DNA from: Pedobacter segetis
GTDB taxonomy: Bacteria; Bacteroidota; Bacteroidia; Sphingobacteriales; Sphingobacteriaceae
Reading direction: 5' to 3'
Assembly (NCBI RefSeq): GCF_016623585.1
Contig: NZ_JAEHFY010000012.1
Span: 62,001-126,000 of the forward strand
DNA length: 64,000 bases
Below, piece after piece: positions 43,787 through 62,634 of the stretch. The notes under the pieces are model-generated. The model saw only the letters and a list, made by a program, of their open reading frames with translations. It was not told where the DNA came from and searched no databases. The position numbers were made by a program, and so were the translations under genes. Within the stretch, counting starts at the first letter, position 1; every line of letters begins with the position of its first letter.

Positions 43787-44572
43787 ATGTCGAGCAAAAT
43801 CATCTATAAAACAGCCGAACAGATTGAATTAATAAGACATAGCTCTTTATTAGTTGGTAAAAGCCACGCAGAGGTTGCCAAGTTGATCGCACCCGGTGTT
43901 ACAACAAAAGCCCTAGACAAAGTAGCAGAAGAATTTATAAGGGATAATGGCGGTAAACCTGCATTTTTGAACTATAATGGCTTTCCAGCCTCTCTATGTA
44001 TTAGCTTGAATGATCAAGTTGTTCACGGTTTTCCAAGTAATTATCAACTTAAAGAAGGAGATGTGCTTTCTGTAGATTGTGGTGTGGTAAAGAATGGTTA
44101 TTATGGAGACTCTGCCTATACCTATGCCATTGGTGAGATTAGCCAAGAAGATGAGCTTTTATTAAAAGTAACTAAAGAATGCCTTTATTTAGGAATAGAA
44201 AAAGCTGTTGTGGGAAATAGATTAGGAGATATAGGTTATGCCATACAACATCACGCAGAGAGTTTTGGTTTTGGGGTGGTAAAAGAATTGGTAGGACATG
44301 GTGTTGGCGTTAAATTACATGAAAAACCGGATGTTGCAAATTACGGCAGAAGGGGTAACGGCATCAAGTTGGAAGAGGGGATGGTTATCGCCATAGAACC
44401 AATGATCAACGCGGGTAAAGCAGGGGTAAAATTTTGGGATGATGGATGGACAGTTTCTACTATTGATAAAAAATCGTCTGCACATTACGAGCATACAGTT
44501 GCAATAAAGAAGGGCAAAGCCGATGTTCTTTCGTCTTTTGAAGAGATAGAACAAGTTTTAAATAAAAAATAG
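43787..44572 (+). CDS. map: Methionine aminopeptidase, type I
   Basis: Removes the initiator methionine from nascent chains using two metal ions. 261 residues. The metal ligands are visible in VDCGVVKNGYYGDSAYT (two Asp), ELVGHGVGVKLHE (His), MVIAIEPMI (Glu) and the YEHTVAI end. Lies between secY and infA, a common arrangement. Confidence 0.97.
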   Translation: MSSKIIYKTAEQIELIRHSSLLVGKSHAEVAKLIAPGVTTKALDKVAEEFIRDNGGKPAFLNYNGFPASLCISLNDQVVHGFPSNYQLKEGDVLSVDCGVVKNGYYGDSAYTYAIGEISQEDELLLKVTKECLYLGIEKAVVGNRLGDIGYAIQHHAESFGFGVVKELVGHGVGVKLHEKPDVANYGRRGNGIKLEEGMVIAIEPMINAGKAGVKFWDDGWTVSTIDKKSSAHYEHTVAIKKGKADVLSSFEEIEQVLNKK

Positions 44573-44591
44573 GATTTTAAAAATATTTGCT

Positions 44592-44616
44592 TAATTTTGC
44601 GTCCCGCTTTAGGCGG
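44592..44616 (+). promoter_or_regulatory. Internal promoter and 5' hairpin before infA
   Basis: TAATTTTG (44592-44599) matches TAnnTTTG and is followed at once by CCGC/GCGG (44604-44616), the same layout as at rplC. It should start a transcript for infA and the alpha-type genes. Confidence 0.65.
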
Positions 44617-44643
44617 TGCTAATTAAGTAAAAATCAAAGAAAT

Positions 44644-44862
44644 ATGGCAAAACAATCCTCTATTGAACAAGACGGTATCATAAAAGAAGCATTATCAAAT
44701 GCAATGTTCCGTGTTGAGTTAGAGAATGGTCATGAGATTATTGCCCATATATCAGGCAAAATGAGGATGCACTACATCAAAATTTTGCCAGGAGATAGGG
44801 TTAAATTAGAAATGTCTCCTTATGATCTTACAAAAGGTAGAATAACTTATAGGTATAAATAA
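44644..44862 (+). CDS. infA: Translation initiation factor IF-1
   Basis: OB-fold factor that occupies the 30S A site during initiation. 72 residues with [40 protein letters not shown], the standard sequence. It has its own likely promoter and precedes rpmJ by 1 base. Confidence 0.98.
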
Positions 44863-59553: not shown

Positions 59554-59725
59554 TATCGCAAATAAAGTAAAAGTTTACTTGCAATTTTAGTAAGTTGCTG
59601 GTTAAAAACCAAAGAAAGAGGTTAAATAAACCTGATAGTAGTGAAAAGCCCGCAGGACGATGCGAGCGGACTTGTAACGGAAAGGTACTGTCTTAAAAAG
59701 CAAATCATTTTTTTATATATTTTCT

Positions 59726-60889
59726 TTAATTTTGCAACAATGGAAAGAGGACTTTAAGCGATTCGTTGTACTGAAGTTCATCTTGTGTAGTGCTGCTTAA
59801 TTGCGGCACTATTTTTTTACTTTCTCTTTCAGAGAAAAACGGAAAGAGGTCCTTTTGCTCATCATTACCCGAAATCATCTTTTCCTCATGTTCTCCGCTA
59901 TAAGGTAAATCATTCTTCCATAGAGTATACATCACTATCAAAAGCTTTTTCTGAACCGCCACATATCCCTTCATCTTTATTTTACTCCTATCATAAACTC
60001 TTTGGTATAGTCTCTTAAAAGGGGTTTCATCAAATCTTACAACGTTTAAAGCCGGCATGTGCAGTATTCTTCGAATTCGTCCATTCCCCTTCTTTGAAAT
60101 CTTCGTTCTGCCCACTCTGTTCCCTGATTGGTTCTCTACCACATCATAGCCAGCATAACTCACCAGTTGCGACTGATTGGTGAACAACTCAAAACCGTTC
60201 GTCTCTGCTATGATGGTGGCTACACTCAATACATCAACTCCTTTGATCAAACAGATATGCTCTACCTTTCGCTTAACCTCTTTATTGCTATCTATATGCC
60301 TAACAATCTCTTTCTTTAGACTCTTTACTTGTTTATCAAACAGGTCAATACTTTTCTTCAGTTGTTTACCCACTTCTTTAGAGGTATAGCCGCTGTGGCT
60401 CAATGCGTGTAACTGGTTCTGAAATACCGTCTTGATTTCCTGGGTACTTTGGTAATGCCTGGTCAATAACCTCAGCTCATAGTTATATCTACCGATAGGT
60501 TTCCATTGTTCAAAACGATGTCCGATACACATCATCGCCAGTCCCCTGGCATCTACACCATCATTCTTTGTCTTTAACCCCAGGGCCTGCATGTACTTGC
60601 TGGACTTATTGGGCAGTACCACAAATATCTGCTGTCCTTGTTCCGTTAGCCATATGGCCAATCTTTCGTGGTAAACGCCCGTGGCTTCCATCAGTATCTC
60701 TACTGCCGTGTCTGTTTTGCTGTGCTTTGTTAACCACAGTAAAAACTCTTTGAAGCCGGACAGCGTGTTGCCAAACTTTCTTGTTCCCTTGATCTTTGAT
60801 CGTAGCTTCACATCTATGCTCAGCATACATACATCAAACTTGTCCTTGGAAATGTCTACACCGATGGTGTATTTGATTAAATGGTCCAT
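59726..60889 (-). CDS. IS110-family transposase (DEDD recombinase)
   Basis: A 387-residue recombinase of the IS110 family. The N-terminal RuvC-like domain has D12 in IGVDISKDKF, E68 (or E65) in ILMEATGVY, and D110 and D113 in NDGVDARGLA. The C-terminal Tnp domain shows IKGVDVLSVATIIAE and the serine motif ENQSGNRVGRTKISKKGN with S255. All landmarks are kept, so it is probably active. Members of this family use an RNA from the element's noncoding end to choose donor and target. It lies in the divergent region between the TMTC-like and SDR genes. Confidence 0.96.
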   Translation of the reverse strand: MDHLIKYTIGVDISKDKFDVCMLSIDVKLRSKIKGTRKFGNTLSGFKEFLLWLTKHSKTDTAVEILMEATGVYHERLAIWLTEQGQQIFVVLPNKSSKYMQALGLKTKNDGVDARGLAMMCIGHRFEQWKPIGRYNYELRLLTRHYQSTQEIKTVFQNQLHALSHSGYTSKEVGKQLKKSIDLFDKQVKSLKKEIVRHIDSNKEVKRKVEHICLIKGVDVLSVATIIAETNGFELFTNQSQLVSYAGYDVVENQSGNRVGRTKISKKGNGRIRRILHMPALNVVRFDETPFKRLYQRVYDRSKIKMKGYVAVQKKLLIVMYTLWKNDLPYSGEHEEKMISGNDEQKDLFPFFSERESKKIVPQLSSTTQDELQYNESLKVLFPLLQN

Positions 60890-60899
60890 AGTCTTTATC

Positions 60900-61096
60900 G
60901 ATTAAAATCAAAAAAACCAAGCTTTTCTTCTACAGTCTTTGCTCATCTTCATTCAAGATAGTTTTTATGAAAACCTCTTTGGGTACTGTTCAGACTCTCG
61001 AAGAAAAAACCGTAAGGGGTGTGCCTTTCACGTCAACATCGATAATAAAATCGTGTCTTGCCGGACTAATGAATTCCCTATCGGTTTTTAGTCTCT
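60900..61096 (-). ncRNA. Candidate bridge RNA of the IS110 element
   Basis: The noncoding left end, read toward the transposase, starts with a -7 box (TACATTTG, 61110-61103). Next comes CCGATAG (61084-61078), identical to the left flank, then TCCGGCAAGA (61065-61056), 7 of 10 matches to the complement of the right flank. Farther on is ATGAGCA (60946-60940), the exact complement of the element's own end TGCTCAT. The order target-left, target-right, donor-right is that of the IS621 bridge RNA. A left-donor segment (TATCTT, 60960-60955) is weak. RNA limits are guesses. Confidence 0.5.
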
Positions 61097-61102
61097 TTTA
61101 TT

Positions 61103-61110
61103 CAAATGTA
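61103..61110 (-). promoter_or_regulatory. -7 box at the IS110 left end
   Basis: Minus-strand TACATTTG fits TAnnTTTG and lies 10 bases inside the element, in place to transcribe the candidate bridge RNA and the transposase. Confidence 0.5.
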
Positions 61111-61207
61111 AAGATATGAGCAGGACTATCGGGAATGAGTTGCAATACAGCACCTTTTCTGATTTTTATGCAGATATTTATGGAATAACAATTGTATCTG
61201 TTGTTGT

Positions 61208-62130: not shown

Positions 62131-62634
62131 ATGGTAGAAAAACCCTATTTGGTTTCGGAAGATAGAATAAAAGTTCCTCGCTTTAGCGAGGAGGCCGGCT
62201 TTTATACTACAAAAAAACGAAGCAAAATAATGGGTAAAATTAAGGCTAAAAATACCAAACCCGAGGTTTTGCTACGTAAGGCCTTATGGAAATTGAATGT
62301 GAGGTATAGAATCCATCAAAAAAATATATTTGGCACTCCAGATTTGGTTATCAAAAAATACCGCTTAGCCATTTTTGTTGATGGCAGCTTTTGGCATGGT
62401 TACGATTGGGGCAAAAGAAAAGAGCAATGGAAAAAAAACAAAGCATTTTGGGTGCCCAAAATAGAGAGGAATATACAAAGGGACCTAGAAGTAAATAAAA
62501 AACTAGAAGATGCGGGTTTTACGGTTATGCGTTTTTGGGATTTTGAGATAGAGAAAAATTTAAACCATTGCATCAATCAGATCATGCTTTATATTGAAGC
62601 GGCAAAAGAGCACAATATACCTGCATTAGAATAA
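62131..62634 (+). CDS. vsr: Very short patch repair (Vsr)-type endonuclease
   Basis: A 167-residue nuclease related to Vsr, which nicks 5' of T in T-G mismatches made when 5-methylcytosine deaminates. The DNA-recognition start RSKIMGKIKAKNTKPEVLLRKAL, catalytic D71 in FGTPDLVI, and the FVDGSFWHG core (F87-W88-H89) are visible. The Vsr zinc cysteines are not present, as in many Bacteroidota copies. No cytosine methyltransferase is next to it. A palindrome CCTCGCTTTAGCGAGG lies in its N-terminal coding part (62176-62191). Confidence 0.88.
   Translation: MVEKPYLVSEDRIKVPRFSEEAGFYTTKKRSKIMGKIKAKNTKPEVLLRKALWKLNVRYRIHQKNIFGTPDLVIKKYRLAIFVDGSFWHGYDWGKRKEQWKKNKAFWVPKIERNIQRDLEVNKKLEDAGFTVMRFWDFEIEKNLNHCINQIMLYIEAAKEHNIPALE

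What the first reader, a model, noticed from the sequence alone, without database searches (positions are those of the whole stretch)
60890..61126. Noncoding end of an IS110 element looks like a bridge RNA with recognisable guides
Seen: reading toward the transposase there is a TAnnTTTG box just inside the end, then CCGATAG (equals the left flank), TCCGGCAAGA (7 of 10 to the complement of the right flank), and ATGAGCA (exact complement of the element's terminal TGCTCAT). Known: IS110-family elements such as IS621 are guided by an RNA from the left end with target loop then donor loop. Inference: this is the guide RNA of this element. The left-donor segment (TATCTT versus CATCGT) is weak, so the fit is incomplete.
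Basis: partly seen in the sequence, partly recalled or inferred. Interest (0 to 1): 0.8.

Follow-up and report, generated by a model that had tools for sequence, protein, structure and literature searches.

The report
Bridge RNA aiming at Flavo-1 repeats

Summary
A second 99% identical copy and about 40 Bacteroidota homologs fix the ends: the element is 59685-61120 (minus strand), between CT cores. The guides, each tested across homologs, are LTG TTAGTCCGGCA (61059-61069), RTG GTGAAAG (61025-61031), LDG GAACAGTACCC (60981-60991) and RDG ATGAGCA (60940-60946). LTG and RTG vary with the flanks in 34 distinct elements (0 of 10,000 permutations reach the observed match). LDG varies with the element end, RDG with the core. 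Excision would join a TTG in the right end to a TATCTTTR box in the left end, giving a Bacteroidota-type promoter (39 of 41 elements). Both own-genome copies sit in repeats of Rfam family Flavo-1 (31 copies over cut-off), at the same internal position; the 70% identical relative does too, with an LTG matching its Flavo-1 subtype. Known kind (IS621-type bridge RNA); the Flavo-1 link was not found in the literature searched. All evidence is sequence-based.

The parts
59685..61120 (-). IS110-group element, 1436 bp from the left-end core to the right end
   Evidence: Shared with a second copy G000:C72 (99%), flanks differ beyond the ends; ends conserved in homologs
59726..60889 (-). IS110 recombinase, 387 aa, DEDD (D12, E68, D110, D113) and Tnp serine S255-G256
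   Evidence: PF01548 and PF02371 above cut-off; phmmer to ISCro4 9t56 (117 bits) and IS621 8wt6 (103 bits); residue numbers, serine placed by reading the alignment
61119..61120 (-). left core CT
59683..59684 (-). right core CT
61109..61116 (-). -7 promoter half TATCTTTA inside the left end
   Evidence: TATCTTTG or TATCTTTA in 33 of 41 distinct elements
59701..59704 (-). -33 promoter half TTTG in the right end; lies 20 bases before the -7 box only after the ends are joined
   Evidence: TTG at this exact place in 39 of 41 elements
60925..61102 (-). predicted bridge RNA, about 178 nt (5' end inferred from the -7 box)
   Evidence: CM R1 123 bits over 60930-61098; MFE -38.1 kcal/mol, z -1.68
61076..61087 (-).
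61007..61019 (-). 3' arm of the target-loop outer stem
   Evidence: own arms pair better than swapped arms, mean -18.1 against -11.0 kcal/mol
61059..61069 (-). left target guide TTAGTCCGGCA
   Evidence: covaries with the left flank over 34 elements, 0 of 10000 permutations
61032..61058 (-). inner hairpin of the target loop
   Evidence: covarying pairs
61025..61031 (-). right target guide GTGAAAG
   Evidence: covaries with the right flank over 34 elements, 0 of 10000 permutations
60981..60991 (-). left donor guide GAACAGTACCC
   Evidence: contains the element end ACAGTAC; C or T variants match in 37 of 38 elements
60955..60979 (-). apical hairpin of the donor loop
   Evidence: all 9 pairs show changes on both sides
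60940..60946 (-). right donor guide ATGAGCA
   Evidence: complement of CTCAT; follows the core: CT with GAG 31/31, CA with GTG 7/7
61121..61132 (-). left half of the interrupted target repeat (CCGATAGTCCTG)
   Evidence: joined site aligns over the junction to an intact Flavo-1 copy, 85% over 80 bases
59621..59684 (-). right half of the interrupted Flavo-1-type repeat

Best explanation
The left end of this IS110-group element encodes a bridge RNA. After excision the two ends meet across the CT core. This should create a Bacteroidota-type promoter (TTTG from the right end, TATCTTTA from the left end) that transcribes about 178 nt. The RNA has two stem-loops. The first pairs with the target by LTG TTAGTCCGGCA (with the bottom strand of ..TAGTCCTG-CT) and RTG GTGAAAG (with the top strand CT-TTCCG). 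The second pairs with the element's own joined ends by LDG ACAGTACC and RDG ATGAG. The DEDD/serine recombinase would then exchange strands at the CT core. The target is the outer-stem base of a Flavo-1-type repeat, so the element uses a dispersed Bacteroidota repeat as its landing site. Shown by sequence: ends, core, guides, fold, promoter halves, target repeat. Inferred: transcription, protein binding, the recombination steps.
For: Two copies, 99% identical, with intact ORFs and different flanks. Guide to flank covariation over 34 distinct elements: LTG 4.7 of 9 against 2.4 permuted (6.3 against 3.5 with one base of register freedom); RTG 4.15 of 5 against 1.4; no permutation reached either. 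LDG and RDG vary with end and core. Conserved fold: 91.6% of cells paired against 28-50% when slid, 16 pairs with changes on both sides; own stem arms pair better than swapped. CM R1 finds the RNA upstream of the transposase in most held-out loci, 21-126 bits; 28 control loci without the element give 15.7 bits at most. Split promoter in 39 of 41. Joined site matched by an intact Flavo-1 copy; joined sites of copy 2 and of the 70% relative hit a Flavo-1 HMM across the junction, 17.6 and 42.2 bits, with no hit in 107 background stretches. The occupied sites match the guides at 12 and 13 of 16 positions; 26 unoccupied Flavo-1 copies give 7 to 10.
Against: No RNA or protein data. This element's own match is imperfect: LTG has G against T next to the core and A in the core, and RTG matches 5 of 7. 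Single-sequence fold stability is modest (z -1.68). The window's own joined site gets almost no Flavo-1 HMM score by itself (2 bits); its link to Flavo-1 runs through the near-identical intact copy at C20:34288-34367 (45 bits by the Rfam model). Guide columns were located partly by eye on the same elements; the permutations control for composition but not for shared ancestry.
Confidence: 0.9

Rival explanations
1. One reading: LTG is CCGATAG and RTG is TCCGGCAAGA, with ends further out.
For: CCGATAG matches the left flank exactly in the window copy.
Against: Copy 2 reads CGTTAG there; those columns do not covary with flanks in 34 elements (206/2000 and 1689/2000); CCGATAG is stem-paired; a 7-mer match arises in 20% of shuffles. 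The flank carries CCGATAG because the repeat does.
Confidence: 0.02
2. The non-coding end is a structured leader or regulatory sRNA that controls transposase expression, as described for ISPpu9, and does not guide insertion.
For: It lies directly upstream of the start codon; sRNAs regulating an IS110-family transposase are known (PMC8450116).
Against: A leader would not have loop segments that vary with external flanks and with the element's own ends. Regulation could be an added role.
Confidence: 0.04
3. The two copies share flank letters only because Flavo-1 repeats are alike, not because a guide selects them.
For: Both sites are in the same repeat family, and n is 2 in this genome.
Against: Flavo-1 copies differ at the insertion point; both occupied sites carry AGTCCTG-CTTTCCG, which fits the guide better than 26 unoccupied copies. 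The closest relative sits in a GGGCGGG subtype and has the LTG CTGGGCGGGCA. Elements of other clades target unrelated sequences with matching guides.
Confidence: 0.05
4. The element is a dead relic whose bridge RNA no longer works.
For: LTG mismatches at the core (CA against CT) and next to it; the LDG ends in CC where the core is CT.
Against: Two nearly identical full-length copies with intact ORFs and conserved catalytic residues.
Confidence: 0.15

Closest known systems
IS621 bridge RNA system (IS110 group; PMC11208160, PMC11208158)
   Same: RNA from the left end upstream of the recombinase, two loops, LTG/RTG/LDG/RDG with the same strand logic, CT core, length near 177 nt, promoter made at the circle junction, repeat as target (REP for IS621)
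   Different: Bacteroidota-type promoter halves instead of sigma70; target is Flavo-1, not the enterobacterial REP; distant recombinase (phmmer 103 bits)
ISCro4 (structure 9t56)
   Same: Closest solved recombinase by sequence, 117 bits
   Different: Its bridge RNA and target were not compared here
seekRNA of IS1111/IS110 elements such as ISEc21 (PMC11187229)
   Same: Upstream non-coding RNA needed for circle formation and targeting; circle-junction promoter
   Different: IS1111 members carry the RNA downstream; ISEc21 targets an IS3-family transposase gene
ISPpu9 and other REP-targeting IS elements (PMC1525189, PMC8450116; abstracts only)
   Same: Insert into dispersed palindromic repeats
   Different: Other phylum and other repeat family
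Flavo-1 (RF01705; PMC2864571)
   Same: The repeat into which the element is inserted
   Different: Reported as a candidate structured RNA of unknown function; a transcriptome study found it in either orientation relative to transcripts (PMC9723704)

Membership tests
IS110 group of the IS110 family | Recombinase with DEDD RuvC-like domain and Tnp domain with conserved serine | tested here: met
   PF01548 and PF02371 above gathering scores; D12, E68, D110, D113 and S255-G256
IS110 group of the IS110 family | Long left non-coding end and short right end (IS1111 is the reverse) | tested here: met
   231 bases before the start codon, about 41 after the stop
IS110 group of the IS110 family | Insertion at a short shared core without target loss or gain beyond it | tested here: met
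   CT at both junctions; joined site equals an intact repeat with one CT
IS110 group of the IS110 family | Lack of the long sub-terminal inverted repeats of IS1111 | not tested
   no repeat search of the ends was run
Bridge RNA | Conserved two-stem-loop RNA with internal loops | tested here: met
Bridge RNA | Target loop: LTG and RTG covary with target flanks | tested here: met
Bridge RNA | Donor loop: LDG and RDG match the element's own joined ends | tested here: met
Bridge RNA | Promoter reconstituted at the circle junction | tested here: met
   sequence only: TTG in 39 of 41, spacing fixed
Bridge RNA | RNA is expressed, binds the recombinase and directs recombination | not testable with these tools
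   needs RNA-seq and biochemistry
Flavo-1 (RF01705) as target | Target scores as Flavo-1 | tested here: inconclusive
   Copy 2 joined site 17.6 bits by a home-made HMM across the junction; the window site scores 2 bits by HMM but is 85% identical to a copy with 45 bits by the Rfam model
Rfam families | Match of the RNA to a described Rfam family | tested here: not met
   no match near a gathering score at 60890-61126

The most novel reading that the evidence does not exclude
Flavo-1, filed as a candidate structured RNA, serves at least partly as a REP-like DNA landing site of Bacteroidota IS110 elements, and the LTG of related elements follows Flavo-1 subtypes (TAGTCC-G here, GGGCGGG in the 70% relative).
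Probability: 0.6. Interest if true: 0.5.

Novelty: new member of a known kind. Interest (0 to 1): 0.42.

Why it matters
It adds a Bacteroidota clade of bridge RNAs with readable guides, a phylum-typical split promoter and a natural CT-to-CA core change followed by the guide. It also gives Flavo-1, an orphan Rfam motif, a concrete partner: it is where such elements land. That makes a DNA-level role for Flavo-1 testable by counting insertions in other genomes.

Tried and rejected
My first reading put the core at the CCT three bases further out (note 1); the homolog ends showed it to be the CT of CTCATATC. No close relative of the element (E <= 1e-80) in the other 17 genomes of the genus. No empty orthologous site: the nearest homologous neighbour gene (L127, 73%) has unrelated DNA upstream. 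Rfam has no family for this RNA. RNAalifold on the MAFFT alignment misses the target-loop outer stem because the arms are out of register; it was tested by arm swapping instead. A literature search for Flavo-1 together with insertion sequence gave one review (only its listing was seen).

Full report
The finding. The gene at 59726-60889 (minus strand) encodes a 387 aa protein with DEDD_Tnp_IS110 and Transposase_20 domains. Its nearest solved relatives are ISCro4 (9t56, 117 bits) and IS621 (8wt6, 103 bits). The DEDD residues are at D12, E68, D110 and D113, and the Tnp serine at S255-G256 (roles after PMC11208158). The RNA lies between the element's left end and this gene.

Ends. A second copy in the same genome (contig C72) is 99% identical over the element and has different flanks. 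Homologs from a family-wide search (400 genomes) and from GTDB contigs have nearly invariant ends: CTCATATCTTTR on the left and AAGACAGTAC on the right. In multi-copy elements the flanks differ right up to the CT, so CT is the core. The window element is therefore 59685-61120. The joined site reads CCGATAGTCCTG-CT-TTCCGTTACAAG. An intact, unoccupied repeat at C20:34288-34367 reads CCGATAGTCCTG-CT-ATCCGTTACAAG across the junction.

Guides. With these ends, LTG was read as the 11 bases before the conserved AGACAC and RTG as the bases ending at the AG after the inner hairpin. In 34 distinct elements the LTG matches its own left flank at 4.68 of 9 non-core positions against 2.38 after permutation. 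The RTG matches the right flank at 4.15 of 5 against 1.41. None of 10,000 permutations reached either value. With one base of register freedom the LTG score is 6.3 against 3.5. The LTG match peaks at the predicted register and falls when slid. The LDG carries ACAGTAC or ATAGTAC as the right end does, in 37 of 38 elements. The RDG reads ATGTG in all 7 elements with a CA core and ATGAG or GTGAG in all 31 with CT. So all four guides have support of their own. Shared ancestry of the elements is not removed by these permutations.

CCGATAG is the 5' arm of the target-loop outer stem (AAACCGATAGGG with CCCCTTACGGTTT). Across the 34 elements it does not follow the left flank (206 of 2000 permutations as good), nor does TCCGGCAAGA follow the right flank (1689 of 2000). 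The flank contains CCGATAG because the target repeat does, and copy 2 has CGTTAG instead. The LDG looked weak because the right end had been placed near CATCGT.

Fold. The single sequence folds into two stem-loops with modest excess stability (z -1.68). On 21 aligned relatives, 21 pairs are 91.6% formed against 28-50% when slid, and 16 pairs have changes on both sides. The outer stem of the target loop was tested by swapping arms between elements: own arms average -18.1 kcal/mol, swapped -11.0, with a permutation sd of 0.5. A covariance model from the 21 finds the RNA just upstream of the transposase in most held-out loci. In 28 control loci of the same genome without the element the best score is 15.7 bits, while L095, which contains the window element, gives 123.

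Expression. In 39 of 41 distinct elements a TTG stands at one fixed place in the right end. It lies 20 bases before the TATCTTTR box of the left end once the ends are joined. This fits the Bacteroidota primary promoter, TTTG near -33 and TAnnTTTG at -7 (PMC7366714; the same paper notes that the -33 motif was not found in Flavobacterium johnsoniae). A circle-junction promoter is known for IS110 elements (PMC11208160, PMC11187229). Transcription was not measured here.

Target. The genome holds 31 matches to Flavo-1 (RF01705) above Rfam's cut-off and 63 up to E 10. Partial matches abut both IS copies. Joined sites of copy 2 and of the 70% identical relative (L009/L031) hit an HMM built from 20 own-genome Flavo-1 copies across the junction (17.6 and 42.2 bits); two more from related elements do so weakly, and none of 107 background stretches does. 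The window site itself scores poorly with this HMM and is tied to the family by its near-identical intact copy, which scores 45 bits with the Rfam model. Insertion is at the base of the outer stem of the repeat (read from the sequences). Both occupied sites carry AGTCCTG-CTTTCCG and match the guides at 12 and 13 of 16 positions; 26 unoccupied Flavo-1 copies whose site could be located give 7-10. The near-identical unoccupied copy at C20 was not among those 26; by hand it would score 11. The relative L009 sits at GGGCGGG-CT and its LTG is CTGGGCGGGCA. Flavo-1 was described as a probable RNA of no known function (PMC2864571) and occurs in either orientation relative to transcripts (PMC9723704), which suits a DNA repeat. 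No paper linking it to IS110 was found (open-access library only).

Verdict. A bridge RNA of the IS110 group, a new member of a known kind, with a corrected guide map and a target repeat not linked to such elements before as far as the searches here show. Sequence evidence is strong for RNA, guides and ends, good for the target family, and absent for activity.

Noticed in passing
L044:2140-3717, L058:2145-2468, L064:1-70, L067:1-70 (Pontibacter pamirensis): One IS110 type (LTG GTGACAGTACT, RTG GCCATTAAG in L044) sits at ..CAGTA-CTTA.. inside the donor loop of other IS110 bridge-RNA genes, apparently in four cases. IS110 aimed at another IS is known (ISEc21), but here the target is the left donor guide of another bridge RNA.
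   Followed up: partly
L036-L039, L042, L068, L082 (Spirosoma, Runella and relatives): Elements with a CA instead of CT core at the right end; the RDG has changed to match (ATGTG). Three of them (L042, L068, L082) have CT at the left junction and CA at the right, as if a CA donor entered a CT target.
   Followed up: partly
G000:C6:43529-43603 and 43856-44725 (L005, L008): A third, distant IS110/IS1111-type transposase (25-28% identity) lies about 250 bases from a Flavo-1 match over cut-off.
   Followed up: no
whole genome G000: Flavo-1 copies fall into subtypes by the letters at the stem base (..AACACG..GTCGGG..GGGCGGG..AGTCCTG).
   Followed up: partly
window 62131-62634 (+): ORF that looks like a very short patch repair (Vsr-type) endonuclease; judged by eye only, no methylase looked for.
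   Followed up: no
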